64,000 nucleotides of DNA from Pigmentiphaga kullae (GTDB taxonomy: Bacteria > Pseudomonadota > Gammaproteobacteria > Burkholderiales > Burkholderiaceae_B). Made by a program: the position numbers and the translations under genes. The stretch covers positions 1,364,001 to 1,428,000 of the forward strand of contig NZ_SGXC01000002.1 in assembly GCF_004216695.1 (NCBI RefSeq), given 5' to 3'. Numbering within the stretch: the first letter of the stretch is position 1; every line of letters begins with the position of its first letter. This document shows positions 393 to 24,282 of this stretch, piece after piece. The notes under the pieces are model-generated. The model was not told the DNA's origin and did no database searches. It saw nothing but the letters and a program-made list of their open reading frames with translations.

Positions 393-1355
393 ATGAAAGC
401 AGCAAGAATGCTGGCGTGCACCCTGCTCGCCGCCGTCTCGGGCGTGTCCCAGGCACAGGACTATCCGACTCGCCCGATACGCATGGTGGTCCCCTTCGCC
501 GCCGGCGGCGTGGTCGACGTGACGGCCCGCCTGCTGGCGCAGAAGCTGACCGAGCGCCTGGGCTGGAACGTCATCGTCGAGAACAAGCCCGGCGGCAACG
601 GCTTCATCGCCGTCACCAACGTGGCGCAGGCGCCGGCCGACGGCTACACGCTGCTGATGGCGCATACCGGCGAATTCTCGGTCAACCCGGCGCTGTTCAA
701 GCATGTGCCCTACGACCTCGAACGCGACTTCAAGCCCATCACCCTGGTCAGCGATACGCCGCTGCTGCTGGTGGCCAACGCCGCCACACCCTACAAGACC
801 TTCGATGACGTGATCAGGGCCGCCAAGGCCAAACCCGATTCGCTCGCGTTCTCGTCTCCTGGCGCCGGCAGCTACAACCACCTGGGCGGCGAATGGCTCG
901 CGCTGGAAGCCGGCATCAAGCTCATGCACGTTCCCTACAAGGGCGGCGCGCCGGCCATGGCGGCCGTGGCCGGCGGCGAAGTGCCGCTGGGCGTGGTGGC
1001 CGTGCCCGCCGTGCTGCCCCACGTCAAGACCGGCCGGGTCCACGTGATAGGCCTGCTGACCCGCAAGACCATGGCCGACCATCCCGACTGGAAGACCGCC
1101 CAGGGCGCGGGCGTGCCGCGCGTGGACGCCTCGAACTGGGTCGGCATGTTCGCTCCCAGGGGGACGCCCGAGGCCATCGTCGAAACCTTGCACCGCGAAG
1201 TCGCCAAGACCCTGGCCGCCCCCGACGTCATCCAGCGCTTCGCCGACAACGGCGCCACCGTGGGCGGCATGCCTCCCGCCGAATTCAAACAACGCATCGA
1301 ATTCGACCTGAAGAACGTCCGCGGCGTGATCGAACGTGCCCGGATCGAACCCTGA
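393..1355 (+). CDS. Bug/TctC-family periplasmic solute-binding protein (first of eight)
   Basis: A 320-residue protein of the Bug (Bordetella uptake gene) family, periplasmic receptors that bind carboxylates, amides or aromatic acids. A signal peptide is visible at residues 1-22 with cleavage after SQA, followed by the family hallmarks RPIRMVVPFAAGG and ENKPGG. The ATG at 393 is chosen because AGGGAG lies 7 nt upstream; an in-frame ATG at 369 has no such site. It opens a long plus-strand operon with a UbiD decarboxylase, a second Bug protein and a molybdenum hydroxylase, so it probably delivers the pathway substrate or reports on it. The ligand cannot be read from sequence. Confidence 0.93.
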   Translation: MKAARMLACTLLAAVSGVSQAQDYPTRPIRMVVPFAAGGVVDVTARLLAQKLTERLGWNVIVENKPGGNGFIAVTNVAQAPADGYTLLMAHTGEFSVNPALFKHVPYDLERDFKPITLVSDTPLLLVANAATPYKTFDDVIRAAKAKPDSLAFSSPGAGSYNHLGGEWLALEAGIKLMHVPYKGGAPAMAAVAGGEVPLGVVAVPAVLPHVKTGRVHVIGLLTRKTMADHPDWKTAQGAGVPRVDASNWVGMFAPRGTPEAIVETLHREVAKTLAAPDVIQRFADNGATVGGMPPAEFKQRIEFDLKNVRGVIERARIEP

Positions 1356-1394
1356 ACACCTGCGCGCCCGGCGCGACACACCTACGGAAACGGC

Positions 1395-2855
1395 ATGACG
1401 GTGAATACCAAGGCGAACGGACTGGACCTGCGGCAATGGCTTGCAGACATCGACGCCGGAAAGCAGCTCAAGCAGGTCTCGGGCGCGGACTGGAACCTGG
1501 AGCTGGGCGCCATCGCCGAGCTCAACGTCAAGAAGTCCGACCCCAAGGCACTGCTGTTCGATGACATTCCCGGCTATCCCGCCGGCCACCGCGTGCTGAC
1601 GTGCACCACCTCGAACGCGGCGCGGCTGGCCAACATCCTGCGCCTGGGCGAGATCGGCGGGCACCAGGATCTGGTGAGCCGGCTGCGGGGGCGGCCCAAC
1701 ACCTGGAAGAGCCGCGCCGCCGAATACGATCCGGTCGAAGTCGAGTCCGGGCCCGTGCTGGAACACGTGGCGGCGGGCAAGGACGTGGACGTATCGGCTT
1801 TCCCCGCCCCGCTCTGGCACGAGAAAGACGGCGGCCGCTACATCGGCACCGGCTGCATGGTGGTCACCAGGGACCTGGATACGGACTGGATCAACGTCGG
1901 CACCTATCGCGTCATGATCCACGACCGCAACCACGTCGGGCTGGACATGATTCCCGGCAAGCACGGCGCCATCCAGTACGACAAGCACATGGCGGCCGGC
2001 AAGCCTTTCCCCGTGGCCATCGTGCTGGGTTGCGATCCGCTGGGCTACACCATCTCGGGCATCGAGGTGCCCTATGGCATGTGCGAGTACAACTACATCG
2101 GCGCCATTCTCGGACAACCGGTGGAGGTCGTGCGGGGCCAGGCCACGGGCCTGCCGTTTCCGTCGGCCGCCGAGATCGTGATCGAGGGCTGGGCGCACCC
2201 GGGCGACCTGAAGGAAGAAGGCCCGTTCGGCGAATTCCACGGCTACTACCCGGGCAAGCAAGGGGTGTCGCCCGTGGTCACCATCGAGCGCGTCTACCAC
2301 CGCTCGCGTCCCATCCTGCTCGGCAGCCCGCCCGCCAAGCCGCCCAACGACTACTCCTACTCCAAGGCCGTGATGCGCTCGGCGTTGCTGATGGACGCGC
2401 TGCAGGCGTCGGGCGTGCCCGACGTGCAGGCGGTGTGGGCGCACGAGATCGGCGGGGCCCGCATGTTCAACGTGGTCTCGATCAGACAGCGCTATCCGGG
2501 CCATGCGCGCCAGGCCGGCCACCTGCTGCTCAATTGCGGCGTGGGCGCCTATATGTCGCGCTGGGCGGTGGTGGTGGACGAAGACATCGATCCGGCCAAT
2601 CTGCAGGAAGTGATGTGGGCGGTAGCCACGCGTTCGGACCCCGAACGCGACATCGACATCGTGCGCCGCGGCATGGGATCGAAGAACGACCCGCTGTTCG
2701 TCACCTTCGGCACCGATACGCCCTTCAACTCGAAGGCCGTCATCGATGCGTGCCGGCCGTATGACTACCTGGCCCGGTTCCCCGAAGTGGCCGAGGCAAG
2801 CAAAGCCCTGCAAGCCGCGACCCGCCGGAAGTGGGGCCACATTCTCGACGACTAA
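1395..2855 (+). CDS. UbiD-family (de)carboxylase
   Basis: A 486-residue protein that matches the UbiD family in length and motifs, including EEGPFGEFHGYYPG near residues 274-287, part of the prenylated-FMN active site. UbiD enzymes reversibly decarboxylate aromatic, heteroaromatic and unsaturated acids using prFMN made by a UbiX prenyltransferase; no ubiX is in this window. It sits 39 nt after a Bug receptor gene and 22 nt before a second one. The operon also encodes a molybdenum hydroxylase and a RidA protein, so catabolism of a carboxylated (hetero)aromatic is more likely than ubiquinone biosynthesis. Confidence 0.9.
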   Translation: MTVNTKANGLDLRQWLADIDAGKQLKQVSGADWNLELGAIAELNVKKSDPKALLFDDIPGYPAGHRVLTCTTSNAARLANILRLGEIGGHQDLVSRLRGRPNTWKSRAAEYDPVEVESGPVLEHVAAGKDVDVSAFPAPLWHEKDGGRYIGTGCMVVTRDLDTDWINVGTYRVMIHDRNHVGLDMIPGKHGAIQYDKHMAAGKPFPVAIVLGCDPLGYTISGIEVPYGMCEYNYIGAILGQPVEVVRGQATGLPFPSAAEIVIEGWAHPGDLKEEGPFGEFHGYYPGKQGVSPVVTIERVYHRSRPILLGSPPAKPPNDYSYSKAVMRSALLMDALQASGVPDVQAVWAHEIGGARMFNVVSIRQRYPGHARQAGHLLLNCGVGAYMSRWAVVVDEDIDPANLQEVMWAVATRSDPERDIDIVRRGMGSKNDPLFVTFGTDTPFNSKAVIDACRPYDYLARFPEVAEASKALQAATRRKWGHILDD

Positions 2856-2877
2856 GCAAGAACCAGGAGGAGCAGAC

Positions 2878-3840
2878 ATGAACCCATGCGTCATCGCCGC
2901 GGCCATCGCCGCCGGCTGCGCGGCCGGCACGGCCCAGGCCCAGCAGTGGCCCGCCCGCCCCATCACCATGATCGTGCCGTTCGCCCCCGGCGGCGTGACC
3001 GACGCCGTGGCCCGTCCGGTGGCCGAAGCCATGGGGCGCAAGCTGGGCCAGCCCGTCGTCGTGGAAAACAAGGTCGGGTCCGGAGGCGCGGTGGGCATCG
3101 CCCATACCGCGCGCGCCAAGCCGGACGGCTACACCATCCTGATGTCGCTGCCGGCGATCTCCAGCATGCCCACGGCCGACAAGCTCATCGGCCGCCAGCC
3201 GATGTACCAGGTCGACCAGTTCGCTCCCATCGCCCGCATCACGGCCGACCCCGCCGTGCTTGCCGTCCGCAGCGACAGCCCGTGGAAGACGGCGCAGGAG
3301 TTCATCGCCTACGCCCGCAAGGAACAGATCACCTACGGGTCGTCCGGCGTTTACGGCACGCTGCACATGTACATGGCCTCGCTGGCCAACACGGCCGGCA
3401 TGAAGACCCTGCACGTGCCCTACGGCGGAGCCGGTCCGGCCATGGTGGCCCTGATGGGCCGGCAGATCCAGGCGCTGGCCGTCTCGCCCGGTTCGGCCAA
3501 ACAGCACGTGGACAGCGGCGCGCTGCGCCTGCTGGCCCACTGGGGCAGCGAGCCCGTCGAAGCCTTCCCCAAGCTGCCCAGCCTGAAATCGCTCGGCTAC
3601 AACGTCGAGTTCTATCAGTGGAGCGGCCTGTTCGCCCCGGCCGGCACGCCGCCGGCGGTGCTCGAAAAACTGGGCGCGGCCGTCAAGTTCGCGGTGGAAG
3701 ACGCCCGCGTGCAGAAGGTCATCGAAGAAGGCGCGGGGTTGCCCATCAAATACCTGAACACCTCGGACTTCACCAAGTTCTGGAAGGAAGACGCCGAAGG
3801 ACAGATCCAGGCCGTGCAACGCATCGGCAAGGTCGATTGA
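2878..3840 (+). CDS. Bug/TctC-family periplasmic solute-binding protein
   Basis: A 320-residue Bug receptor, the second in this operon. The ATG at 2878 has a perfect AGGAGG seven bases upstream (2865-2870). A short signal peptide (about residues 1-20, ending TAQA) precedes the mature start QQWPARPITMIVPFAPGG, and ENKVGSGG follows. Two Bug genes flanking one ubiD is unusual and suggests two ligands, for example substrate and intermediate, or a recent duplication followed by divergence; the two sequences differ clearly over most of their length. The ligand is unknown. Confidence 0.92.
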   Translation: MNPCVIAAAIAAGCAAGTAQAQQWPARPITMIVPFAPGGVTDAVARPVAEAMGRKLGQPVVVENKVGSGGAVGIAHTARAKPDGYTILMSLPAISSMPTADKLIGRQPMYQVDQFAPIARITADPAVLAVRSDSPWKTAQEFIAYARKEQITYGSSGVYGTLHMYMASLANTAGMKTLHVPYGGAGPAMVALMGRQIQALAVSPGSAKQHVDSGALRLLAHWGSEPVEAFPKLPSLKSLGYNVEFYQWSGLFAPAGTPPAVLEKLGAAVKFAVEDARVQKVIEEGAGLPIKYLNTSDFTKFWKEDAEGQIQAVQRIGKVD

Positions 3841-3857
3841 CGCAAGCAGACAACGAG

Positions 3858-4667
3858 ATGCCCGACATGCAACTGCACCACACCCCCTCCGCCGACGGTA
3901 CCCGCATCGCCTACGCCGTGCACGGCAGGACCGACGCGAAGCATCGTTTCGCCCTGATCCATTCGCTGGCCATGGACCACAGCTTCTGGGACACGGTCGT
4001 GGACGAACTGGGCCCGGACGCCGCAGTGGCGGCCTTGGACGCGCGCGGCCACGGCCGGTCGGACAAGCCCGCCGGCCCCTATCGCATCGAGACCTTCGCC
4101 GACGACGTGGCAGGCGTGCTCGATGCGCTGGGCTGGGAACGCGCGGTGGTGGGCGGCGCATCGATGGGCGGCAGCGTCGCCCTGGCGTTCGGCATCCGCC
4201 ACCCCGACCGCACCATCGGCCTGGGCCTGTTCGACACCACGTCCTGGTATGGCGCGACCGCCCCGGCCGATTGGGAAGGCCGCGGCCAGAAGGCCGTACA
4301 GGAAGGCCTGGCAAGCCTGATCGCGTTCCAGGAAACGCGCTGGTTCACCGACGACTTCCGCCGCGGCCATCCCGACGTCGTCGAACGCAGCAAGCGGATC
4401 TTTCTTGCCAACGACGTGCCGGCCTACCTGGAAACCTGCCGCATGCTCGGCAACATGGACCTGCGCGCGGGCGTGGCCGGCATCCAGGCGCCCACCCGGA
4501 TCCTGGTCGGCGAAGAGGACTACGCGACGCCCGTGGCCATGGCCCAGGCGCTGGCCGACGCCATCGCCGGTTCGACGCTGCGGGTCCTGCCCCGGGCCCG
4601 GCACCTGTCGCCGCTCGAATACCCGCGCGAAGTGGCAGACAGCCTGCTGGCGCTGGCCCGGGCCTAG
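3858..4667 (+). CDS. Alpha/beta hydrolase, 3-oxoadipate enol-lactonase-like
   Basis: A 269-residue alpha/beta hydrolase. The nucleophile elbow GASMGG places Ser102, an acid is visible at about Asp221 (GEEDYATP) and the His at about 249 (RARHLSPLEYP), a complete catalytic triad. The ALDARGHGRSDKP stretch is typical of PcaD-like enol-lactonases and related C-N or C-C bond hydrolases. It starts 17 nt after the second Bug gene; ATG 3867 is an alternative start. In this operon it could open a lactone, lactam or ring-fission product. PcaD itself is unlikely because no other beta-ketoadipate genes are nearby. Confidence 0.85.
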   Translation: MPDMQLHHTPSADGTRIAYAVHGRTDAKHRFALIHSLAMDHSFWDTVVDELGPDAAVAALDARGHGRSDKPAGPYRIETFADDVAGVLDALGWERAVVGGASMGGSVALAFGIRHPDRTIGLGLFDTTSWYGATAPADWEGRGQKAVQEGLASLIAFQETRWFTDDFRRGHPDVVERSKRIFLANDVPAYLETCRMLGNMDLRAGVAGIQAPTRILVGEEDYATPVAMAQALADAIAGSTLRVLPRARHLSPLEYPREVADSLLALARA

Positions 4668-4683
4668 AAGCGAGGAATACGAC

Positions 4684-5562
4684 ATGTCCCCCTTTGAATT
4701 GCTGAAGCCGGCCACCCTGGACGAAGCGCTGAAGATCATCGCCGCGCCGGACTTCGCCGGCCGTCCGGTAAGCGGCGCGACCGCGATCTCGCTGATGCGG
4801 CGCGCGGGCATCCTGAACGTCGACAGCCTGCTCAGCCTGGAAGGCCTGCGCGCGGGCCTGCGCAGGATCCAGGTCACCGACGACGGCCAGGCCCGCATCG
4901 ACGGCCTGGCCACGCTGGGCGAGATGGAAGGGCACGCCGGCCTGTGCGCCTCGCATCCGCTGCTGCCGCAGGTGTTCTCCACCCTGGCCAATCCGCGCGT
5001 GCGCAACGTCGCGATGATAGGCGGCTACCTGTCGCATGGCGATCCGCACATGGACCTGCCGCCCGTGCTCAGCGCGCTGGGCGCCCGCGCCGTCGCACAA
5101 AGCGTGCGCGGCGTGCGCGAGATCGCCATCGACCAGCTCTACCAGGGTTACTACGAAACCGCGCTGGAGGCCGACGAACTGATCACCGGGCTGGCCATCC
5201 CGCGCCAACCCGCCTGTGCCTGCTACAAGAAGGTCACCACCCGCGCGCGCCACGACTGGCCCACGCTGGGCATCGCCGCCGCCTTCGACCTCGACGGCGG
5301 CCGCATCGCCCGGGTCCGGCTGTTCATCGGCGCCGCCACCGACCGGCCCTTGCGCCTGCGGCAGGCAGAAGCGGTGCTCGACGGCCAGGGCTGGTCGGCC
5401 GAACTGGGCCGGCGCGCCGCGCAGGCAGCCGTGGACGAGGCCACGCTGGTGCCCGACAGCCACGGCAGCATGGAATACAAGCAGGCCCTGTTGCGCGCCT
5501 ATCTTCCCGAGGCCGTCGAACAGGCCCTGCAAGCTCCCAAACCGGCAGCGAGACAAGCATGA
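4684..5562 (+). CDS. Molybdenum hydroxylase FAD subunit (CoxM/xanthine dehydrogenase type)
   Basis: A 292-residue FAD-binding subunit of a heterotrimeric xanthine-oxidase-family hydroxylase. The N-terminal FAD domain shows SGATAIS and the second FAD loop NVAMIGGYLSHGDP; the C-terminal CO-dehydrogenase-flavoprotein-type domain covers roughly residues 175-285. It passes electrons from the 2Fe-2S subunit to an acceptor. The stop overlaps the start of the molybdopterin subunit gene as ATGA, implying translational coupling. The gene order FAD, Mo, Fe-S differs from the FAD-FeS-Mo and Mo-first orders of several characterised CO dehydrogenase or nicotinate operons. Confidence 0.92.
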   Translation: MSPFELLKPATLDEALKIIAAPDFAGRPVSGATAISLMRRAGILNVDSLLSLEGLRAGLRRIQVTDDGQARIDGLATLGEMEGHAGLCASHPLLPQVFSTLANPRVRNVAMIGGYLSHGDPHMDLPPVLSALGARAVAQSVRGVREIAIDQLYQGYYETALEADELITGLAIPRQPACACYKKVTTRARHDWPTLGIAAAFDLDGGRIARVRLFIGAATDRPLRLRQAEAVLDGQGWSAELGRRAAQAAVDEATLVPDSHGSMEYKQALLRAYLPEAVEQALQAPKPAARQA

Positions 5563-7844
5563 CGACAGAACGCCCTCCCCTGAACCGGCTCGGCAAGGGC
5601 CTGCGCCGCCTCGAGGCGGTCGACAAGGTCACCGGCCGCGTCGATTACACCCACCACGTGGCGCTGCCCGGCATGCTGCATGCGAAGATCGTGCGCAGCC
5701 ACGTGGCCCACGGCCGCCTCGTCGGCATCGACACCGCCGATGCGAAGGCCGTGCCCGGCGTCTACGGCGTGTTCACCGGCGCCGACATCCTCAGGATCAT
5801 CCCCGAGCCCTATTACGGCCCGGCCTTCCACGACCAGCCCATCCTCGCCATCGACAAGGTGCGCTACGTGGGCGAGCCGGTCGCCGTCGTGGTGGCCGAA
5901 TCGCCCCACGTAGCCGAGGATGCCGCCGGCCTGGTCCAGGCCGAGATCGACGAGCTGCCCGCCGTCTTCGACGAGATCGAGGCCATGCACGCCGATGTCT
6001 ACGTGCACGACTCGCTGCGTCCGGCCGGCACCTTCGCCGATCTCAAGCACCTGAACGGCATACGCGACACCAACGTGGCGCTGACCTTCGGCGTCAAGAA
6101 AGGCAACGTCGAAGAAGCATTCAAGACCGCGCACCGCGTGTTCAGGAACACCTTCAAGACCCAGCAGGTCATGCACGTGCCGCTCGAGCCCATGGTGTCG
6201 GTGGCCGACGTGCGCAGCGGGCACGCCACCCTGTACACGGCCAGCCAGACGCCGTCGTTCGCCCGGACCGAGATCGCACGGCTGCTGGGCTGGCGCGAGA
6301 ACCAGGTCAAGGTCAAGACCGCCTTCCTGGGCGGCGGCTTCGGCTGCAAGCTCTACGTCAAGCTCGAACCCCTGGCCGTGGCGCTGAGCATGCTGTGCCG
6401 GCGCCCGGTGCGGGTCGCCCTGACCATGGCCGAGCAGTTCTACACCATCACCCGCCATCCCACCACGTTCAACATCGAATCGGCGGTGGACCGGAGCGGC
6501 CGCATCCTGGCGCGCCGCTGCGAGGTGATCTGGAACGGCGGCGCCTACGCCGACATCGGTCCGCGCGTCACGCAGAAATCCGGCTTCACCGCTCCCGGCC
6601 CCTACGACATCGAACACGTGGATGTCACTTCGGTGGCGGTCTATACCAACCGTCCGCCGGCTGGCGCCTTCCGTGGTTTCGGCATTCCGCAACTGGTGTG
6701 GGCCTACGAGAGCCAGGCCGACATCATTGCCCGCGAGATGGGCCTGGACCCGGTCGAGTTCCGACTGCGCAACGTGCTGGCCGACGGCAAGCGCCACGCT
6801 ACCGGCACCGTCATGAAGGATGCCGCGATCCCGCTGGTGCTGAACCGACTGGCCGAACGCTTCGGCTGGAACCAGCCCTTCGAGCACGGCAGCGGGCGCT
6901 ACCGCCGCGGCCGCGGCATAGGCGTGGGCATCAAGGCCTGCGTGTCCCCCACCACCTCGGTGGCGGCCGTCTCGGTGGCCGCCGACGGCAGTTGCAGCGT
7001 GCAGTGCAATACCGTGGACATGGGCCAGGGCTCGGACACGCTGATGGCCATGATCGTGTCCGAGGTGCTGGGCGTACCTGCCGAATCGGTCTCGGTGGTC
7101 AACCCGGACACCGATGCTTCCCCCTACGACATGGCCACGCTGGGTTCGCGCTCGACCTTCCACATGGGCCACGCCGTGCGGCTGGCCGCCGAAGACGCGC
7201 AGGCCAAGCTCGTCGCCATGGCCCGGGAGGTCGGCGTGGACCAGGTCGACCCCGGCGATCTGGGCACCTTGTTCGTCCGCAAGTTCGGCATGCAGGCCGG
7301 CACGATCATCGGCACCGGAATCTACAAACCCACCTATCAATCTCCCGACAAGGCCACCGGCCAGTCGGAGGACATCACGCCCAACTGGATGATAGGCGGC
7401 ACGGCGATCGAGGTCGAAGTCGACACAGAAACAGGCATGTACACCATCCTGCGGATGGAGAACGTGGTCGACTGCGGCACCGCGCTCAACCCGCTGGTGG
7501 TGCAGACCCAGATCAGCGGCGCGGCCCTCATGCAGCTGGGCACGGTCACGCTGGAGGAAATGGAGTTCGACGAACAGGGCCAGCTGCGCAACGCCGGCCT
7601 GTCGGAATACAAGATACCCGGCATCCAGGACATCCCCCGCGCCATCGGCCGCGAAACGGTGGACGCCTACCAGGCCAACGGTCCCTTCGGCGGCAAGGGC
7701 GTGGGCGAGAGCGCGACCTTCGGCGTCGCCTCGGCCCTGGCGGCCGCCATCGAAGACGCCGTCGGCGTCCGCATCACGCAACTGCCCATCCGCCCGGAAA
7801 AGATCTGGGAAGGAATGCGCGCCAGACAGGAACAGCACGCATGA
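5559..7844 (+). CDS. Molybdenum hydroxylase large (molybdopterin) subunit
   Basis: A 761-residue molybdopterin-binding subunit of the xanthine dehydrogenase family. An alpha/beta hammerhead domain covers about residues 20-130. The cofactor-binding motif GGGFGCK lies near residue 258, AFRGFG near 370, and the catalytic glutamate is Glu717 in GKGVGESA. The CO-dehydrogenase signature AYRCSFR is absent (AFRGFG instead), so this is not an aerobic CO dehydrogenase despite the Cox-like neighbours. Family members hydroxylate N-heteroaromatics, purines or aldehydes, or reduce hydroxybenzoyl-CoA. The flanking UbiD, hydrolase and RidA genes favour a nitrogen-containing ring. The start overlaps the preceding stop. 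Confidence 0.93.
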   Translation: MTTERPPLNRLGKGLRRLEAVDKVTGRVDYTHHVALPGMLHAKIVRSHVAHGRLVGIDTADAKAVPGVYGVFTGADILRIIPEPYYGPAFHDQPILAIDKVRYVGEPVAVVVAESPHVAEDAAGLVQAEIDELPAVFDEIEAMHADVYVHDSLRPAGTFADLKHLNGIRDTNVALTFGVKKGNVEEAFKTAHRVFRNTFKTQQVMHVPLEPMVSVADVRSGHATLYTASQTPSFARTEIARLLGWRENQVKVKTAFLGGGFGCKLYVKLEPLAVALSMLCRRPVRVALTMAEQFYTITRHPTTFNIESAVDRSGRILARRCEVIWNGGAYADIGPRVTQKSGFTAPGPYDIEHVDVTSVAVYTNRPPAGAFRGFGIPQLVWAYESQADIIAREMGLDPVEFRLRNVLADGKRHATGTVMKDAAIPLVLNRLAERFGWNQPFEHGSGRYRRGRGIGVGIKACVSPTTSVAAVSVAADGSCSVQCNTVDMGQGSDTLMAMIVSEVLGVPAESVSVVNPDTDASPYDMATLGSRSTFHMGHAVRLAAEDAQAKLVAMAREVGVDQVDPGDLGTLFVRKFGMQAGTIIGTGIYKPTYQSPDKATGQSEDITPNWMIGGTAIEVEVDTETGMYTILRMENVVDCGTALNPLVVQTQISGAALMQLGTVTLEEMEFDEQGQLRNAGLSEYKIPGIQDIPRAIGRETVDAYQANGPFGGKGVGESATFGVASALAAAIEDAVGVRITQLPIRPEKIWEGMRARQEQHA

Positions 7845-8317
7845 ACATCGACATCGAGTTCGAACTCAACGGACGCGCCGAGCGCCGCCACGTGGACGTG
7901 CGCGACAACGCCATCGACATGCTGGGGCGCTGCGGCCTGAAAGGTGCCCGCGAAAGCTGCGGCCAAGGCTTGTGCGGCTGCTGCACCATCTACGTGGACG
8001 GCGCGCCCGCCTCGGGCTGCCTTTACCCGGCATGGAAACTGCAAGGCAAACAGGTCGAGACCGTCGAGGCGCTCGATGCCGGGGACGGAGACCTCGACCC
8101 GATCCAGCAGGCCTTCATCGATTGCGGCGCCTTCCAGTGCGGCTTCTGCACGCCCGGCTTCGTGATGATGACGCGCAAGCTGCTCGAGGCCCATCCCGAC
8201 CCGACGATCGCCCAGATCGAACACTACCTGTCGGGCAACCTGTGCCGCTGCGGCACCTACCCCGAAATCATCGCCGCGGTGCGGCTGGCCGCCCAGCGCG
8301 CCGGTGCCCGCAACTAA
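7841..8317 (+). CDS. Molybdenum hydroxylase 2Fe-2S subunit (CoxS type)
   Basis: A 158-residue iron-sulfur subunit with two 2Fe-2S centres. The plant-ferredoxin-like N-terminal cluster uses Cys40, Cys45, Cys48 and Cys60 (CGQGLCGCC then SGC), and the helical C-terminal cluster uses Cys100, Cys103, Cys135 and Cys137 (CGFC and LCRC). It carries electrons from the molybdenum centre to FAD. The ATG overlaps the stop of the large subunit as ATGA, so all three subunits are translationally coupled. Length and cysteine pattern are those of an intact family member. Confidence 0.94.
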   Translation: MNIDIEFELNGRAERRHVDVRDNAIDMLGRCGLKGARESCGQGLCGCCTIYVDGAPASGCLYPAWKLQGKQVETVEALDAGDGDLDPIQQAFIDCGAFQCGFCTPGFVMMTRKLLEAHPDPTIAQIEHYLSGNLCRCGTYPEIIAAVRLAAQRAGARN

Positions 8318-8329
8318 GGAGGACACTGC

Positions 8330-8980
8330 ATGGAAATGGTCGCCGAGCGCCTCATCAAGGCCCCGCGCAATGAAGTCTGGCGCTGCCTGAACGACCCCGA
8401 GGTCCTCAAGGCCTGCATTCCGGGCTGCGAATCCATCGACGCCACCGGACCCGACACCTACAAGGTCGCCATGGTCGCGGCCGTGGGCTTCATCAGGGCC
8501 AGATTCGTGGGCGACCTCACGCTCCAGAACAAGATCGAGGACACCTCGTACGACCTGAGCTTCAACGGCACCGGCGGCGCAGCCGGCTTCGGCAAGGGCG
8601 CTGCCAGCGTCGCGCTGGGCGACGCCCCGGACGGCACCACCCTCGCCTATCAGGTCAAGGCACAGGTCGGCGGCAAGCTGGCCCAGGTGGGAGCGCGCGT
8701 GATCGACGGCGTCGCCAGGAAGATGGCGGACGAGTTTTTCCAGAGGCTGGACAAGGCCATCACCGGATCGGATGCGGAAAACGTCGACGATACACAGGCG
8801 GCACCGGGTGGATCGGCGATGGCCACGACGACCGTTCAAGCAACCGCCGCAGGGCCGGAATCCTCGCAAGCAACCGGCACTACGCCGGCTGCCGCGCCCT
8901 CGCGCACCTGGATCTACGTCGCGGCAGCCGTCGTGGTCGCGGTGGCCGCGGCATTCGCCTTCGGTGGAGGCGGCGCATGA
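8330..8980 (+). CDS. CoxG-like SRPBCC protein with C-terminal membrane anchor
   Basis: A 216-residue protein. Residues 1 to about 150 form a CoxG/SRPBCC domain. A Thr/Ala/Pro-rich linker follows, then a hydrophobic helix near residues 192-211 that would tether it to the inner membrane. In CO dehydrogenase operons CoxG helps recruit the enzyme to the membrane; by analogy this protein probably docks the upstream molybdenum hydroxylase at the cytoplasmic face, close to quinones. An AAGGAGG-type site precedes the ATG. Its last four bases are shared with the start of the next gene. Confidence 0.85.
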   Translation: MEMVAERLIKAPRNEVWRCLNDPEVLKACIPGCESIDATGPDTYKVAMVAAVGFIRARFVGDLTLQNKIEDTSYDLSFNGTGGAAGFGKGAASVALGDAPDGTTLAYQVKAQVGGKLAQVGARVIDGVARKMADEFFQRLDKAITGSDAENVDDTQAAPGGSAMATTTVQATAAGPESSQATGTTPAAAPSRTWIYVAAAVVVAVAAAFAFGGGGA

Positions 8981-9354
8981 ATTCCTGGCCTACTCCCCGC
9001 CTGCCCGCGCCAGTCGGCCATTATGTGCCCGCCATGCAGACCGGCCATCTCCTGTACCTGTCGGGCGTGCTGCCCGACCTGGCACGCGGCGACGACTTCG
9101 CCACGCAGTTCGGCACCTGCTTCGATCGCATCGAGGCCATCCTGGCCGAAGGCGGCCTGGGATTGAACAGCATCGTGCAATGCACGGTCTACCTGTCGGA
9201 TATCGGATTGTGGGACGAATTCAACCAGCTGTATCGTCGCCGCCTGGACCAACATCGTTGTGCGCGAACGGTGGTACCGGTCGGGCCGCTGCACTTCGGC
9301 GCGCAGATCGAGGTGCAAGTGGTGGCGGAAGCGACCCGGTCAGCCGCTGCCTGA
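8977..9354 (+). CDS. RidA (YjgF/YER057c/UK114) family protein, probable enamine/imine deaminase
   Basis: A 125-residue RidA-family protein whose ATG overlaps the CoxG-like stop (ATGA). The conserved Arg of the active site is present in CARTVVPVG and the following Glu in AQIEVQVVAE. RidA-like enzymes hydrolyse reactive enamines or imines, and several catabolic relatives deaminate ring-fission products such as 2-aminomuconate. Its place at the end of this operon is the best clue that the pathway handles a nitrogen-containing intermediate. Its last 134 nt overlap the 3' end of the convergent ligase gene. Confidence 0.88.
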   Translation: MNSWPTPRLPAPVGHYVPAMQTGHLLYLSGVLPDLARGDDFATQFGTCFDRIEAILAEGGLGLNSIVQCTVYLSDIGLWDEFNQLYRRRLDQHRCARTVVPVGPLHFGAQIEVQVVAEATRSAAA

Positions 9355-10741
9355 GCTGGCGGCGTGAAATCTTGCCGTTGGCTCCCAGCGGAATGCTGTC
9401 CAGCTTCCACCAGTAGACCGGCTGCCATGCGGCCGGCAATTGCGTCGCCAGGCGTATGGCCAGGTCGTCCGCCTGCACGCCGGGCGCGCCCGTGAAGGCA
9501 CAGCCCACCACGGCGCCGTACGTGGCGTCGTCCACGCCAAAGGCCACCGCCTGCCGTACCCCGGGCACCTGCTCGATGTAGCGTTCGACGTCGCCCGGAT
9601 GGATGTTCACGCCGCCGCGCAGGATCATGTCGTCCACCCGGCCCGCCAGCGCCAGCCGGCCGGTCGGGTCGAACGCGCCGAGGTCCTGCGTATCGACGGG
9701 CGCGTCGCCGGCGTACACGAAATCGCCGTCCACCGACCGCGTCGCCAGCGCCGCGCAAGGCGTCCCGACCAGGATGCGGCCGGGCTCGCCCGCCGCGTCC
9801 TCGGCGCCATGCCCGACCGTCACCCGCACTCCCTCGATAGGGAACCCGACCCGTCCTATCCGCCGCGCGCGCTCGTCCGAGCCGCAGATCCAGCCCAGCT
9901 CGGAACTGCCATACAAGTTGATGAGCGGCACGCGCCAGGTCTCTTCCGCGCGCTGCCACAGATCGGGTGCCAGTTCCGACGAACTGCATGAGTATCGCGT
10001 CAGAGGGGTGGGCAGCGCATCCGCCACGCCCAGCATGATGCGTACCATGCTGGGCACCATGGGCATGAAGCGGATCCCGCGCTCGTCCAGCCAGCCCGTC
10101 AGCCTGGAGGCGGAAAACCCCGGCGCCACGTGCAACTGCGTGCCGGCCGACAAGAACGGCATCAGGCTCAGGATCTGCGCCGAATACCAGTTCAACCCGC
10201 GCACTTCCAGGCAGGGCTCGCCCTCGCCCAGTCCCATCAGCCGCGCGGATACCTCGCCGTTGCGCCGCAGCGCCGCCGCGGACTGATAGACCAGCTTGGG
10301 CATGCCCGTGGTGCCCGAGGTGCAATTGACCAGCACCGTTCCGGCCGGCATCGACGCCGCGCCCGGCGCCTGCGCCAGCGGCAGGCAATCCGCGCCCGCG
10401 GGCGCGAGGGCCAGCCTGCCCGATGGCCGCGCGGTCGCCAGCAGCGTGCGCACCGTTTCGGCCGGCAGGTAATCCATATCGATATTGAGGACCGCCGCGC
10501 CCGCCATCCAGGCACCCAGCCAGAGCACCACTTTCTCGACGCCGTTGGCGGTCGGCAGCAAATAGAGGCGCTGCCCGCCCGTTGCCGCCGGCAGGGATCG
10601 CGCTACCGCGCGCACCCGCTCGTACAGGGCCCGGCCATCCAGTTCCGCGCCGCCGGTGTCCGCCAACGCCAGCCGGCCGGGATGGCGGCTCGCCCGCCGC
10701 GCCAGGCAGGATTCGACGAACTGCGCGAACTCGCTAGCCAT
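9221..10741 (-). CDS. AMP-dependent acyl-CoA synthetase/ligase family protein
   Basis: A 506-residue ANL-superfamily enzyme that adenylates a carboxylic acid and probably forms its CoA thioester. Visible motifs are the P-loop-like NCTSGTTGMPK, the aromatic motif NLYGSSELG, GRVDDMILRGG, and the C-terminal catalytic lysine in GANGKISRRQL. The family normally stops soon after that lysine. Here the frame continues about 39 codons with a proline/arginine-rich tail antisense to ridA, so the tail may be non-functional. The gene overlaps the LysR gene upstream by 8 nt and is probably co-transcribed with it. The substrate is unknown. Confidence 0.87.
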   Translation of the reverse strand: MASEFAQFVESCLARRASRHPGRLALADTGGAELDGRALYERVRAVARSLPAATGGQRLYLLPTANGVEKVVLWLGAWMAGAAVLNIDMDYLPAETVRTLLATARPSGRLALAPAGADCLPLAQAPGAASMPAGTVLVNCTSGTTGMPKLVYQSAAALRRNGEVSARLMGLGEGEPCLEVRGLNWYSAQILSLMPFLSAGTQLHVAPGFSASRLTGWLDERGIRFMPMVPSMVRIMLGVADALPTPLTRYSCSSSELAPDLWQRAEETWRVPLINLYGSSELGWICGSDERARRIGRVGFPIEGVRVTVGHGAEDAAGEPGRILVGTPCAALATRSVDGDFVYAGDAPVDTQDLGAFDPTGRLALAGRVDDMILRGGVNIHPGDVERYIEQVPGVRQAVAFGVDDATYGAVVGCAFTGAPGVQADDLAIRLATQLPAAWQPVYWWKLDSIPLGANGKISRRQLRQRLTGSLPPPLAPRSARRSAAARPVPPFAHNDVGPGGDDTAG

Positions 10742-11669
10742 GGCCGGTCAGCGCCTCGGGCTCCATGCGGAAATGCTCGGCCGCGCGTGCCAGCAACCAC
10801 GACCGGAAACAGGCTACTTTCTGATGCTCGTAGCGGCTCTCCGGGGTTGCCAGGTAATACGCCGACTTGGACTTGAGCCGCGGACCGAATGGCGATACCA
10901 GCGTCCCCGTGCGCAGCGCACGGTTGGCCAGCGGCGTGCGCGCGATCACCACGCCCAGTCCCTCCACCGCCCCCGCCAGCGAGGTCAGCTGCATGTGCAT
11001 GCCCAGTTCCATCGGCGGCTGTATCTTGCTCAAGCCGGCGGCGGCCAGCCATTCCGGCCAATCGTCTTCGTACAGCGACGTAAAGTATGTACGCAGCCAC
11101 GGCGTCCCGGCCAGGATCTCCCGCGCATCGCCCCAAGACTTGCCCGCCAGCAGGCGGGGCGATACCGCGGGGAAGAAGTATTCGTCGCACAGCCAATCGC
11201 ATCTCACCCCGTCCCACTTGCCCGAACCATAGCGGATCGCGACATCGTAGGCATTGATCTGGAAGGCATCGAAGACAGACGTGGTGGAAAGCTGGAGCCG
11301 CAGTTGCGGAAAAGCGGCCCGGAACTCGGGCAGCAACGGCAGCAGGCACTCCGTGGCGAACGTGGGCAGGCAACTGATCGACAAGGTATGTTCGTTGCCC
11401 CCCTGGCTGACCCGATCCGTCGCGGTCGACAGCCCCACCAGCAGGCTGCTGATGGCCTCCAGGTATTCCGAGCCCGGCGTGGTCAGCGAGATCCGGCCCT
11501 TGGCGCGCACGAACAGTGTGGTGCCCAGGCGATCCTCAAGCGAACGGATCTGATGGCTGATCGCCGCCTGGGTCAGATGCAGCTCATTGGCCGCCTTCGT
11601 GAAACTCAGGTGACGGGCTGTCGCCTCGAACGCAAGCAATGCATTCAGCGGCGGAATAAAAGAAGGCAT
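10734..11669 (-). CDS. LysR-family transcriptional regulator (GcvA-like)
   Basis: A 311-residue LysR regulator. The N-terminal winged helix-turn-helix includes FTKAANELHLTQAAISHQI, and the rest is a periplasmic-binding-protein-like effector domain. PPLNALLAFEATARHLSFT is typical of the GcvA/AmpR-like subgroup. It overlaps the downstream ligase gene by 8 nt on the same strand, an unusual arrangement since LysR genes mostly face their targets. It may autoregulate a two-gene operon or act on a distant locus. Confidence 0.9.
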   Translation of the reverse strand: MPSFIPPLNALLAFEATARHLSFTKAANELHLTQAAISHQIRSLEDRLGTTLFVRAKGRISLTTPGSEYLEAISSLLVGLSTATDRVSQGGNEHTLSISCLPTFATECLLPLLPEFRAAFPQLRLQLSTTSVFDAFQINAYDVAIRYGSGKWDGVRCDWLCDEYFFPAVSPRLLAGKSWGDAREILAGTPWLRTYFTSLYEDDWPEWLAAAGLSKIQPPMELGMHMQLTSLAGAVEGLGVVIARTPLANRALRTGTLVSPFGPRLKSKSAYYLATPESRYEHQKVACFRSWLLARAAEHFRMEPEALTGHG

Positions 11670-18971: not shown

Positions 18972-19979
18972 ATGAAAATCGACATGCACGCCCACCACTT
19001 CCCGCGCATCACGCGGGAAGAAGCCGCCGCCCTGAGCGTCGAGCGCGCGCCCTGGCTGCAGGTGGCGCCGGACGGCAAGACCGGCGACATCATGCGCGCC
19101 GACAAGCCCTTCCGCCCCGTCTACGACGCGCTGTGGGATCCGCAGGCGCGCCTGGCCGAGATGGATGCCCAAGGCGTGGACATCCAGATCACCTGCGCCA
19201 CGCCCATCATGTTCGGCTACGAGTTCACGCCGGAGAAGGTCCTGCCCTGGGCCCAGCGCATGAACGACCTGGCGCTGGAATTCTGTGCCGCCGCGCCCAA
19301 GCGCCTGGTGGCGCTGGCGCAGGTGCCGCTGCAGGACATCGACGCCGCCTGCCGCGAGGCCTCGCGCGCCAAGGCCACCGGCCACCACGGCGTGCAGATC
19401 GGCAATCACCTGGGCGACCGCGACCTCGACGACGAGGGCCTGGTCACCTTCCTGCAGCACTGCGCCAATGAAGGCATCCCGCTTCTGGTCCACCCGTGGG
19501 ACATGATGGGCGGCAACCGCATGAAGCAGTGGATGCTGCCCTGGCTGGTGGCCATGCCCGCCGAAACGCAGCTCGGCATCCTGTCGCTGATCCTGTCGGG
19601 CGCCTTCGAGCGCATCCCCGAATCGCTGAAGATCTGCTTCGCCCATGGCGGCGGTTCGTTCGCCTTCATGCTGGGCCGCGTGGACAATGCCTGGAAGCAT
19701 CGCGACATCATCCGCAAGGACTGCCCGCGCCTGCCCTCGGAATACGTCAAGCGCTTCTACGTCGATTCGGCCGTGTTCGATCCGGGCGCGCTGCGCCTGC
19801 TGGCCGACGTGATGGGCACCGACCGCATCATGCTGGGCTCGGACTACCCCTTCCCGCTGGGCGAACAATCCATCGGCAAGCTGGTGGCCGAACAGCCCGG
19901 CTTCAGCGACTCCGACAAACAAGCCATCTATGCCGGCAACGCGGTCGAATTCTTCGGCCTGCAAGCGCTGGTACGCTGA
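18972..19979 (+). CDS. 2-amino-3-carboxymuconate-6-semialdehyde decarboxylase (ACMSD)
   Basis: A 335-residue amidohydrolase-superfamily decarboxylase. The zinc ligands are visible as His6 and His8 (DMHAHHFP), the His of VHPWDMMGG or of CFAHGGG, and the Asp of [28 protein letters not shown] is a signature of ACMSD. The enzyme removes the ring-derived carboxyl from ACMS, made from 3-hydroxyanthranilate, to give 2-aminomuconate 6-semialdehyde. It pairs with the upstream 2-aminomuconate deaminase. The connecting dehydrogenase and the ring-cleaving dioxygenase are not in the window. Confidence 0.92.
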
Positions 19980-20007
19980 CCTCTTCCCACCCCCACAAGG
20001 AAATGCC

Positions 20008-20997
20008 ATGAGTTTCGTCACTGCGTTGCGGCGCACATCGGTCGCTATGGCCGCCGGCCTGACCCTGGCCGGCGCGAGTACGCATAGCGCCCATGCCGAA
20101 TACCCCGAGCGGCCGATCCGCCTGATCGTCCCCTCGCCCCCGGGCGACGGATCGGACGTCCTTGCCCGCAATGTAGGCAAGGCCATGGGCGATGTGTTGG
20201 GTCAGAGCCTGGTGATCGAAAACAAGCCAGGCGCAGGCGGCAGCATCGCCTCGGACATCACAGCCAAGGCAGCCGCCGACGGTTATACGGTGCTGCTGGG
20301 CAACGCCAGTACCCACGCCGTCACGCCGGGGCTCTATAGCAAGCTGCCCTATGATTCCGAGAAAGCCTTCAGCACCGTCTCGCTGCTGGCCAGCGCGCCC
20401 AATGTGCTGGTCGTCAACCCCGCGCTGCCGGTCAAGAACATCGGCGAGTTCATTGCCTACGCCAAGGCCAACCCCGGCAAGCTCAACGTCGGATCGGGCG
20501 GCAATGGTAGCCTGTCGCACCTCTCGGCCATTCTCTTCAACTCCATGGCCGGCATAGATATCCCGCACGTACCCTACAAAGGCGCTGCGCCTGCCGTCAC
20601 CGCCGTCATGGGCGGGGAAATCTCGGCGCTGATGATCAACATCCCGACCGTGTCGCAGCAAATCCAGGCCGGCAAGCTGCGGGCGCTGGCGGTCAGCAGC
20701 CTGGAGCGTTCACCGGCGTTGCCCGACGTGCCGACGCTGAACGAGTCGGGGCTCAAGGGCTACAACACCGAAGCCTGGTTCGGCCTGTTCGTGCCGGCCG
20801 GAACCCCGGCCCCGGCCATCGCCAAACTGCAATCGGCCGCCGCCGCGGCGCTCAAGAACGAAGCGGTGCTGACCAACATCCGCAACATGGGCGCGGTGCC
20901 CAAGGACCTGAAAGGTCAAGCCTTCGCCGATTTCGTCAAGGCCGAAGCCACCAAATACCGGGCCATCATCAAGCAGGCCGACGTCCGCATCGACTAA
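20008..20997 (+). CDS. Bug/TctC-family periplasmic solute-binding protein
   Basis: A 329-residue Bug receptor with a long signal peptide (about residues 1-30, ending AHA), then EYPERPIRLIVPSPPGDGSD and ENKPGAGG. It begins 28 nt after the ACMSD stop with AAGGA before the ATG, so it belongs to that operon and may bind an aminobenzoate or picolinate-like acid; this is inference from context. The SPPGDGSD variant of the usual PFAPGG loop is distinctive. Confidence 0.93.
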   Translation: MSFVTALRRTSVAMAAGLTLAGASTHSAHAEYPERPIRLIVPSPPGDGSDVLARNVGKAMGDVLGQSLVIENKPGAGGSIASDITAKAAADGYTVLLGNASTHAVTPGLYSKLPYDSEKAFSTVSLLASAPNVLVVNPALPVKNIGEFIAYAKANPGKLNVGSGGNGSLSHLSAILFNSMAGIDIPHVPYKGAAPAVTAVMGGEISALMINIPTVSQQIQAGKLRALAVSSLERSPALPDVPTLNESGLKGYNTEAWFGLFVPAGTPAPAIAKLQSAAAAALKNEAVLTNIRNMGAVPKDLKGQAFADFVKAEATKYRAIIKQADVRID

Positions 20998-22130: not shown

Positions 22131-23087
22131 CTATTGCGCCTGCAGCCCCGCGATCTCGACCAGGCGGCGGACCTTGGCCTTGTCCGCCGCGATGAAGGCC
22201 CGGTATTCCTCGGGCGAGCCCTTGTAGAGCTGGGTGCCGTAATCGGCCAGCCTGGCCTTCAGCTCGGCCGAGGCGACGACCTTCTGCAATGCGCGGCTCA
22301 AGGTTTCCTGTATGGCCGCGGGCGTTCCCGCCGCCACATACAGCGCGGTCCAGTTGCCCGCCTTCAGGTCCGGCAGGCCGAGCTGCGCGGTCGTCGGCAC
22401 GCCGGGTACCGAAGCCAGCGGCTGGTCGGACATGACGGCCAGCGCGCGCAGCTTGCCGGCGGCCACTTGCGGGCCGACCACCTGGCTGCTGTCCATCAGC
22501 ACGTCGATCTGGCCCCCCGCGACCGCCGTGACCGACTCGCCGCTGCCCTTGTACGGGACCTTGACGATGTCCAGGCCGTAGCTCGCCTTCAGCGTTTCCA
22601 TGCCCAGGTGCAGGGTGCCCGCGGCGCCATAATTGAGAACGCCGGGCCGGGCCCGCGCATAGGCGATCAGTTCATCCAGCGTCCTGACCGCCAGGCTGGA
22701 TCTGACCACCAGCACCGACGGCGTGTTGGTGGCCAGCCCCACCGGCGCGAGCTGCTTGTCCGGATCGTAGGGCAGGTGCTTGTACAACAGGGTATTGACG
22801 ATCTGGGTGCCCACGGTGCCCAGCAGCAGCGTGTAGCCGTCGGCCGGATAGCCCAGCATTTCCTTAACGCCCAGCACGCCGCCCGCGCCCCCGCGGTTCT
22901 CCACGACCACCGTCTGGCCCAGCACGTCGCCCAGGCTCTTGCCGATCTGCCGGGCGGCAAAATCCGAATTGCCGCCCGCCCCGAAAGGCACGATCAGGCG
23001 CAAGGGCCGGTCCGGATACGTCTGGGCCTGCGACGCGCCGGCACAGGAAAACAGTACGACCATCCACCACAATCTCGACAAGCGCAC
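22131..23087 (-). CDS. Bug/TctC-family periplasmic solute-binding protein
   Basis: A 318-residue Bug receptor. The start is the GTG at 23087 with AAGGAG eight bases upstream; no ATG fits. A signal peptide (about residues 1-22, ending SQA) precedes TYPDRPLRLIVPFGAGGNSD and ENRGGAGG. It is the middle gene of an operon with an upstream 2-oxoglutarate-type oxygenase and a downstream porin, so it probably captures the oxygenase substrate. Confidence 0.93.
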   Translation of the reverse strand: MRLSRLWWMVVLFSCAGASQAQTYPDRPLRLIVPFGAGGNSDFAARQIGKSLGDVLGQTVVVENRGGAGGVLGVKEMLGYPADGYTLLLGTVGTQIVNTLLYKHLPYDPDKQLAPVGLATNTPSVLVVRSSLAVRTLDELIAYARARPGVLNYGAAGTLHLGMETLKASYGLDIVKVPYKGSGESVTAVAGGQIDVLMDSSQVVGPQVAAGKLRALAVMSDQPLASVPGVPTTAQLGLPDLKAGNWTALYVAAGTPAAIQETLSRALQKVVASAELKARLADYGTQLYKGSPEEYRAFIAADKAKVRRLVEIAGLQAQ

Positions 23088-24179: not shown

Positions 24180-24282
24180 GTTCTTCTCCACGGTTGGCGC
24201 CCCGGTGGCGCCGGGTTCGATGTCCATGCGAAGAACTTTAAGATCGTGGAGATATATTGAAAAATTAAAAAATAAGTTCGTC

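What the first reader, a model, noticed from the sequence alone, without database searches (positions are those of the whole stretch)
393..9354. Undescribed nine-gene pathway: two Bug receptors, UbiD, lactonase-like hydrolase, molybdenum hydroxylase, CoxG and RidA
The genes are tightly packed, mostly with ATGA overlaps from the FAD subunit through CoxS and again from CoxG to RidA. The large subunit lacks the CO dehydrogenase Cys motif, so CoxG probably docks a heteroaromatic hydroxylase at the membrane. UbiD suggests decarboxylation of a ring acid and RidA suggests an enamine or imine intermediate. Together they point to breakdown of a carboxylated N-heterocycle. I do not recognise this gene set from described nicotinate, quinoline or pyrrole pathways.
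Basis: partly seen in the sequence, partly recalled or inferred. Interest (0 to 1): 0.75.

Follow-up and report, generated by a model that had tools for sequence, protein, structure and literature searches.

The report
Uncharted ring-acid breakdown gene cluster
A soil bacterium carries a compact set of genes that probably takes apart a small ring-shaped acid, most likely one containing nitrogen, without a ring-cutting oxygenase; related sets occur in distant bacteria and I found no account of what they eat.

Summary
The nine genes are real and intact at the stated coordinates, with the ATGA overlaps described. The cluster lies in a Pigmentiphaga-like genome. Two convergent genes, an AMP ligase and a LysR regulator, belong with it. 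UbiD and the three-subunit molybdenum hydroxylase are linked in Betaproteobacteria, Acidobacteriota and Bacillota: of 47 UbiD loci with long flanks, 40 carry the hydroxylase. CoxG, a hydrolase and RidA recur, but not everywhere.

In sister genera the hydroxylase, CoxG and hydrolase occur without the close UbiD, often beside a VanA-like Rieske gene, so UbiD is probably one of several entry enzymes to a common core.

UbiD is closest to heteroaromatic-acid decarboxylases (PhdA, HudA, HmfF). The large subunit lies apart from the 4-hydroxybenzoyl-CoA reductase, CO dehydrogenase and HMF-type references tested. The layout works like the HMF/furoate pathway, with a different hydrolase and with RidA.

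Best reading: decarboxylation, Mo hydroxylation to a lactam, hydrolytic opening, RidA release of ammonia. This favours a five-membered N-ring such as a pyrrole carboxylate. A plasmid relative in a pyridine-like cluster speaks against it. The substrate is inferred, not shown. New variant of a known kind, moderately interesting.

The parts
393..1355 (+). Bug1, periplasmic TctC-family receptor (uptake)
   Evidence: PF03401 213 bits; 88-96% identical in L005, L006, L008, L009
1395..2855 (+). UbiD-family prFMN decarboxylase; R172, E275, E280, K324, R328 invariant in the 41 aligned rows
   Evidence: PF01977 etc.; TIGR00148 271 bits over cut-off 244.85; alignment A2; fold nearest PhdA, HudA, HmfF
2878..3840 (+). 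Bug2, second TctC-family receptor
   Evidence: PF03401 210 bits
3858..4667 (+). alpha/beta hydrolase of the PcaD (enol-lactonase) type with Ser-Asp-His triad; proposed ring-opening hydrolase
   Evidence: PF00561; TIGR02427 203.9 bits, under its cut-off 255.85; triad kept in 11 rows, 10 distinct
4684..5562 (+). FAD subunit of the Mo hydroxylase
   Evidence: PF00941, PF03450
5559..7844 (+). Mo-cofactor large subunit; Glu E717 (catalytic by recalled position) invariant in 35 rows
   Evidence: PF01315, PF02738, PF20256; A1; tree
7841..8317 (+). [2Fe-2S] subunit
   Evidence: PF01799
8330..8980 (+). CoxG (SRPBCC) with a hydrophobic C-terminal tail; proposed membrane/quinone docking of the hydroxylase
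   Evidence: PF06240 113.5 bits; tail read from the translation
8977..9354 (+). RidA enamine/imine deaminase
   Evidence: PF01042; Arg and Glu kept in 18 of 18 aligned rows, 17 distinct
9221..10741 (-). AMP-dependent acyl/aryl-CoA ligase, convergent; its 3' end overlaps RidA by 134 bases
   Evidence: PF00501 118 bits; relatives in 13 of 80 UbiD loci
10734..11669 (-). LysR regulator, overlaps the ligase start; probable regulator of the cluster
   Evidence: relatives beside the ligase in Pigmentiphaga and Paraburkholderia loci; fused LysR-ligase frame in L121

Best explanation
The cluster is a catabolic operon for a heteroaromatic carboxylic acid. Inferred order: (1) Bug receptors help uptake; (2) UbiD, with prFMN made by the genome's UbiX, removes one ring carboxylate; (3) the FAD/Mo/2Fe-2S hydroxylase adds oxygen from water at a ring carbon next to the heteroatom and passes electrons through CoxG to the membrane; (4) the hydroxylated ring, as its lactam tautomer, is opened by the PcaD-type hydrolase (Bacillota with this cluster have a Cyclase-family hydrolase gene in its place); (5) the resulting enamine/imine is hydrolysed by RidA, releasing ammonia. 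The chemistry needs no ring-cleaving oxygenase and works like the furoate (Hmf) route. It fits a five-membered N-ring best, for example a pyrrole dicarboxylate going through pyrrole-2-carboxylate to 2-oxoglutarate plus ammonia. Where present, the AMP ligase may activate the remaining carboxylate. Shown here: gene content, conservation, folds, conserved residues. Inferred: step order, ring size, substrate and products.
Against: No substrate evidence of any kind. RidA was found in only 17 of 80 loci and the alpha/beta hydrolase (at least 45% identity) in 12 of 80; the short betaproteobacterial clusters have neither beside UbiD. In 4 of 8 regions read around the unlinked hydrolase it sits beside a different Mo hydroxylase (L148, L150, L151, L152), so its link to this UbiD is not shown there. 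A large subunit inside the same clade (59% identity, L089) lies in a plasmid cluster with TcuA/TcuB, an amidase and a second Mo hydroxylase and without hydrolase, CoxG or RidA matches, which looks more like a pyridine-acid pathway. Seven of 47 UbiD loci lack the hydroxylase, and 7 of 11 hydroxylase-bearing family genomes lack the close UbiD. RidA is missing in 5 of 7 of those sister loci. No ligase match was found in the 10 Bacillota loci. The Cyclase-bearing genomes were chosen from loci already seen to carry it, and the hydrolase split follows phylum. Genes present in fewer than 4 loci were not all examined. The role of HmfF R304 is recalled.
Confidence: 0.48

Rival explanations
1. Six-membered N-ring pathway: a pyridine mono- or dicarboxylate is decarboxylated and hydroxylated once or more, and later ring cleavage uses enzymes elsewhere in the genome.
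For: Large-subunit PDB relatives include 6-hydroxypseudooxynicotine dehydrogenase and quinoline oxidoreductase. A member of the same large-subunit clade (L089, 59% identity) and an outlying relative (L092, 36%) lie in plasmid clusters with TcuA, amidase or asparaginase and XdhC, L092 also with a ligase and a PaaI-type thioesterase; that these look like pyridine-acid clusters is my recalled reading.
Against: A pyridone is too stable for simple hydrolytic opening (chemistry knowledge), and no ring-cleaving dioxygenase was recognised among the gene families shared by at least 4 UbiD loci.
Confidence: 0.24
2. Furan-type pathway: a furan (di)carboxylate is decarboxylated by UbiD, hydroxylated at C5 as acid or CoA ester, and the enol-lactone is opened by the PcaD-like hydrolase to 2-oxoglutarate; RidA is an accessory.
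For: Gene logic of the clusters that I read as HMF clusters, L123 and L124 (UbiD, Mo hydroxylase with CoxG domain; AMP ligase in L124). The hydrolase scores best against 3-oxoadipate enol-lactonase. R328 aligns with HmfF R304. GMC oxidoreductase and aldehyde dehydrogenase beside the core in L118. RidA is absent beside the core in several loci.
Against: UbiD is 31% and the large subunit 28-30% identical to the HMF-type proteins and the tree separates them. RidA has no obvious role in furan opening, yet it lies with the core in Pigmentiphaga, Paraburkholderia, Ottowia, Ancylobacter, two sister genera and three Bacillota loci.
Confidence: 0.15
3. Two or more part-pathways that merely share a transcript: UbiD and the Mo hydroxylase act on different substrates.
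For: UbiD occurs without the hydroxylase in 7 of 47 long loci and the hydroxylase without the close UbiD in sister genera.
Against: UbiD and hydroxylase remain linked in three phyla in different gene orders; internal promoter- and terminator-like sites are not above the shuffled expectation.
Confidence: 0.08

Closest known systems
HMF/furoate pathway clusters (hmfABCDEFGH type, named by me from gene order; L124, Paraburkholderia aromaticivorans pBN1)
   Same: UbiD and UbiX, three-part Mo hydroxylase with a CoxG domain, AMP ligase, a crotonase-type enzyme and a GMC oxidoreductase in L124; GMC oxidoreductase also beside the core in L118
   Different: 31% (UbiD) and 28-30% (Mo subunit) identity; CoxG is a separate gene; PcaD-type hydrolase in place of the crotonase; RidA added
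PhdA, phenazine-1-carboxylate decarboxylase (7pda)
   Different: lacks the K324/R328 pair; described operon is decarboxylase, prenyltransferase and maturase phdABC (PMC13040415, passages)
HudA, pyrrole-2-carboxylate decarboxylase (7abn)
   Different: ligand-contact residues N318 and W322 (PMC7976604, passages) correspond to Y320 and K324 here
4-hydroxybenzoyl-CoA reductase and other three-subunit Mo hydroxylases
   Different: 457 bits against an equivalog cut-off of 994.55; separate clade in the tree
RutC/RutD of uracil breakdown
   Same: an alpha/beta hydrolase next to a RidA-type protein
   Different: both far below the NCBIfam cut-offs (51.5 of 238.5; 32 of 169.1); no RutA or RutB among the genes described here

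Membership tests
UbiD family (prFMN decarboxylases) | UbiD domains and the catalytic Arg-Glu-Glu network | tested here: met
   PF01977/PF20695/PF20696 over cut-off; TIGR00148 over cut-off; R172, E275, E280 invariant in 41 rows
UbiD family (prFMN decarboxylases) | UbiX flavin prenyltransferase in the same genome | tested here: met
   G000:C1:2301411-2301905; its 199-aa frame scores 225.9 bits on TIGR00421, cut-off 108.9
HMF furan-2,5-dicarboxylate decarboxylase HmfF | close sequence relation to HmfF-type UbiD | tested here: not met
   31% identity to two HmfF-type proteins; Y320 where HmfF has His
Furoyl-CoA dehydrogenase HmfABC | large subunit inside the HmfA clade, with C-terminal CoxG domain | tested here: not met
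   28-30% identity, CoxG a separate gene, separate clade; the HmfA label of the two reference rows is mine, from gene order
CO dehydrogenase (form I CoxL) | AYxCSFR motif (recalled) and TIGR02416 score | tested here: not met
   motif absent; 289 bits against 991.15; separate clade
4-hydroxybenzoyl-CoA reductase | TIGR03194 score and clade | tested here: not met
   457.4 bits against 994.55; separate clade
Xanthine dehydrogenase XdhABC | NF043082 equivalog score | tested here: not met
   478.4 bits against 780
Nicotinate or isoquinoline dehydrogenases | large subunit inside their clade | not tested
   no reference rows obtained for the tree; only PDB sequence similarity, 3hrd E 9e-61
3-oxoadipate enol-lactonase PcaD | TIGR02427 equivalog score | tested here: not met
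   203.9 bits against 255.85; catalytic triad present
RidA enamine/imine deaminases | conserved Arg and Glu of active RidA (identity of residues recalled) | tested here: met
   present in 18 of 18 aligned rows
RidA enamine/imine deaminases | TIGR00004 subfamily score | tested here: not met
   73.6 bits against 106.25; Pfam PF01042 is met

The most novel reading that the evidence does not exclude
A previously undescribed route, free of ring-cleaving oxygenases, by which bacteria of at least three phyla mineralise pyrrole-type (five-membered N-heteroaromatic) carboxylates: UbiD decarboxylation, Mo hydroxylation to a lactam, hydrolysis by either of two unrelated hydrolases, and RidA deamination to a 2-oxo acid. 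It would be the nitrogen counterpart of the furoate pathway, with exchangeable entry enzymes (UbiD, Rieske, GMC plus aldehyde dehydrogenase).
Probability: 0.28. Interest if true: 0.7.

Novelty: new variant of a known kind. Interest (0 to 1): 0.52.

Why it matters
The hydroxylase-UbiD pair occurs from Bacillota to Betaproteobacteria, though sparsely (the large subunit was in 2 of 299 Pseudomonadota genomes drawn evenly, the window's own included). It probably serves a natural compound for which no gene set is known to me. If the reading holds, it gives a second genetic route for five-membered heteroaromatic acids, assigns a catabolic role to a RidA, and supplies a UbiD with an unusual basic pocket as a possible carboxylation biocatalyst. 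It also makes a testable prediction: the same core should be fed by different entry enzymes in different genera.

Tried and rejected
Considered and set aside: CO dehydrogenase (motif and score); 4-hydroxybenzoyl-CoA reductase (score and tree); membership of the HMF pathway.

Led nowhere: literature. One search (UbiD + molybdenum hydroxylase + decarboxylase + gene cluster) found 0 papers; (three of UbiD, xanthine dehydrogenase family, RidA, CoxG) 0 papers; (three of six terms) 17 papers, of which the 12 listed have no occurrence of 'xanthine dehydrogenase'; searches showed nothing on this gene set in their listings (titles and abstract starts). The library holds open-licence PMC papers only, so absence there is weak. 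The HmfF structure paper was not held. Papers PMC7976604, PMC10176493, PMC13040415, PMC8988006 and PMC8379154 were seen as passages only; all others as search listings only.

The tree is a quick search with SH-aLRT only and long-branch warnings. Its UbiD-linked rows other than the window, L113 and L114 came from a scan with UbiD, so being UbiD-linked is partly a matter of how they were found; Bacillota and Acidobacteriota were not searched for the hydroxylase alone. L068's large subunit (30% identity) was labelled UbiD-linked there but is not of the clade and is counted as lacking it elsewhere. The alignments of RidA and hydrolase hold only called genes; the RidA proteins of L005, L006, L008 and L009 were not in it. 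The promoter/terminator scan was near or below chance, so it neither proves nor disproves one transcript. Tandem repeats: nothing relevant. Plasmid records L085/L093 carried no annotation. Outputs were cut at 20,000 characters; L112 and L113 were re-read and matches in L112-L121; L114's gene list was seen only in part.

After checking against the calls I lowered the best explanation from 0.50 to 0.48 and the novel case from 0.30 to 0.28 and raised the pyridine rival from 0.22 to 0.24, because of the L089 context.
Full report
OBSERVATION. The ATGA overlaps at 5559-5562, 7841-7844 and 8977-8980 are real. On the other strand an AMP-dependent ligase (10741-9221) and a LysR gene (11669-10734) converge on the operon; the ligase's end overlaps the end of RidA by 134 bases. 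Upstream lie a gene that reads as a chemoreceptor (reaching window position 113) and genes that read as nuo. The genome is 6.2 Mb in 5 contigs; its nearest named relatives for this locus are Pigmentiphaga and related Alcaligenaceae or Burkholderiales records.

CONSERVATION. One scan of named genomes with UbiD gave 80 loci, the best of 94 relatives. A hydroxylase large subunit of at least 45% identity lies in 59 of the 80; among the 47 loci with at least 8 kb before and 4 kb after UbiD it lies in 40. The seven without are L015, L054, L056, L062, L068, L073 and L075. All nine genes keep the window's order in L005, L006, L008 and L009; L007 ends inside the cluster. In Paraburkholderia the same parts are split and rearranged: hydrolase, FAD, Mo, 2Fe-2S, MFS transporter, RidA, then ligase and LysR on the other strand, then in most a PaaI-type thioesterase, UbiD, CoxG, in some UbiX, and a second transporter. 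In seven Bacillota loci the order is IclR, Cyclase-family hydrolase (one checked by Pfam), CoxG, FAD, Mo, 2Fe-2S, UbiD, with transporters, RidA, UbiX or an RraA-like protein nearby in some. Many betaproteobacterial MAGs have only Bug, CoxG, FAD, Mo, 2Fe-2S, UbiD, Bug. The unit is sparse: the large subunit (E at most 1e-170) was in 2 of 299 Pseudomonadota genomes, the window's own included.

CORE AND ENTRY ENZYMES. In 151 genomes of the window's family the large subunit (E at most 1e-170) is in 11 and the close UbiD (at least 73% identity) in 4 of those 11, all of the window's genus. In G000, G096 and G116 the two are a few kilobases apart; in G043 they sit on different contigs. The other seven carry the hydroxylase without it. 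Around these seven (L115-L121) CoxG is next to the hydroxylase in 7 of 7, the hydrolase in 6 of 7 (L120 starts at a contig edge), RidA in 2 of 7 (L117, L118). A gene reading as a VanA-like Rieske oxygenase is nearby in 5 (L115, L116, L117, L119, L121; L115 and L117 checked by Pfam), and L118 has a GMC oxidoreductase and an aldehyde dehydrogenase. An Ancylobacter plasmid shows RidA, LysR, hydrolase, CoxG-like, FAD, Mo, 2Fe-2S and MFS genes with no UbiD in the 25 kb read. G437 (63%) has hydrolase, CoxG-like, FAD, Mo and 2Fe-2S and no RidA or UbiD match in 20 kb. Salipiger L090 (54%) has a CoxG-like gene but no match to the window's hydrolase, and only a 25% RidA-like gene further off. Alicycliphilus L089 (59%) has none of hydrolase, CoxG or RidA and instead TcuA/TcuB, an amidase and a second Mo hydroxylase. 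I therefore read the hydroxylase, CoxG and hydrolase, often with RidA, as a core, and UbiD as one of several entries to it, with L089 as an exception. On the large-subunit tree the UbiD-less rows are nested among UbiD-linked ones from three phyla, which suggests that the UbiD link is old and was later replaced; but most rows were found through UbiD and the tree is a quick one.

HYDROXYLASE. No NCBIfam equivalog cut-off is met by any of the three subunits. E717, by position the catalytic Glu (recalled), is invariant in 35 rows. The tree puts the window's protein with 37 other rows (SH-aLRT 94), apart from three HcrA rows, two CoxL rows and two HmfA-type rows. The HmfA-type rows come from plasmid clusters that I name HMF clusters from their gene order; in L124 the 1009-aa Mo subunit carries a C-terminal CoxG domain. 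So CoxG as a partner of a ring-acid hydroxylase has a parallel there.

HYDROLASES AND RidA. The window's hydrolase is PcaD-like but under the PcaD cut-off; its triad is kept in 11 rows, 10 of them distinct. Of 12 non-Bacillota genomes with the UbiD-hydroxylase cluster, 11 have a hydrolase 48-52% identical to the window's, while the 2 Bacillota genomes searched have none. The Cyclase protein is in none of the 12; it is in 6 of 6 Bacillota genomes, which were chosen from loci already seen to carry it. This looks like replacement of one ring-opening hydrolase by another, though the split follows phylum. Against the simple story, the unlinked hydrolase sits beside a different, 1080-1090-aa Mo hydroxylase in 4 of the 8 regions read (L148, L150, L151, L152); in one acidobacterial genome (L153) it sits instead beside an MFS gene 63% identical to one of the Paraburkholderia cluster. 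RidA keeps its Arg and Glu in 18 of 18 rows (17 distinct proteins), but was found in only 17 of the 80 loci.

MECHANISM. Among gene families shared by at least 4 UbiD loci, read by eye from one representative each, I recognised no ring-cleaving dioxygenase; rarer genes were not all examined. A ring opened by hydrolysis after one hydroxylation is chemically reasonable for a pyrrole or furan, whose hydroxylated form is a lactam or lactone, and not for a simple pyridone. RidA points to nitrogen. Together these favour a five-membered N-ring; pyrrole-2-carboxylate to 2-oxoglutarate and ammonia would need no further enzymes. A known pyrrole-2-carboxylate route with a flavin oxygenase, ending in 2-oxoglutarate, is recalled, not looked up. 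I give the general scheme 0.48 and the pyrrole-type reading 0.28.

VERDICT. Real, conserved and apparently unassigned; a new variant of a known kind (it works like the furoate pathway but is not a member of it). Interest 0.52.

Noticed in passing
window 9221-9354: RidA and the convergent AMP ligase overlap at their 3' ends by 134 bases; the tblastn matches also overlap, by 101-128 bases, in L005, L006, L008 and L009 and in L112, but not in L028.
   Followed up: yes
L121:5402-7930 (-): LysR and AMP ligase form one 842-aa open frame (both domains found by Pfam); in the window the two genes overlap at 10734-10741. A ligase fused to a regulator could be a sensor of the activated acid.
   Followed up: partly
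L003 8449-10113 (-), ending at window position 113: A gene that reads as a methyl-accepting chemotaxis protein is divergent from the operon and also precedes it in L005 and L006 (cluster c47); it could sense the substrate.
   Followed up: no
L135 8336-9796 (G000:C1:527335-528795): A second UbiD (47-48% identity) in the same genome, beside a Bug gene, with a protein of 437 aa that reads as a Rieske oxygenase downstream.
   Followed up: partly
L148 6173-9415, L150 5832-9074, L151 10360-13617, L152 6444-9716: A different Mo hydroxylase (1080-1090 aa, 31-32% identity) paired with a relative of the window's hydrolase, with a second UbiD type nearby: perhaps a parallel pathway.
   Followed up: partly
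L117 14068-14826 (-); also L011, L017, L115, L116, L121: A short SBP_bac_3-type protein (L117 checked by Pfam) whose start shows no obvious signal peptide recurs beside or near the core; it may be an enzyme rather than a receptor.
   Followed up: no
L089 and L092: Plasmid clusters with related Mo hydroxylases, TcuA, amidase or asparaginase, XdhC and a polysaccharide-deacetylase-family gene resemble each other; possibly a pyridine-acid pathway.
   Followed up: no
L065 and L082: The same UbiD type without the Mo hydroxylase follows genes that look like hydantoinase A/B and a two-part TPP dehydrogenase (read by eye).
   Followed up: no
L020, L025, L026, L027, L037, L058, L061, L066: Record titles name these MAGs Bordetella parapertussis, but their loci resemble other betaproteobacterial MAGs; the name may be an automatic error.
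   Followed up: no
window 18.8-24.2 kb: Further uptake and catabolic genes by eye: amidohydrolase, two more Bug receptors (19930-20997 +, 22131-23087 -) and a 2-oxoglutarate-type oxygenase (23139-24227 -).
   Followed up: no
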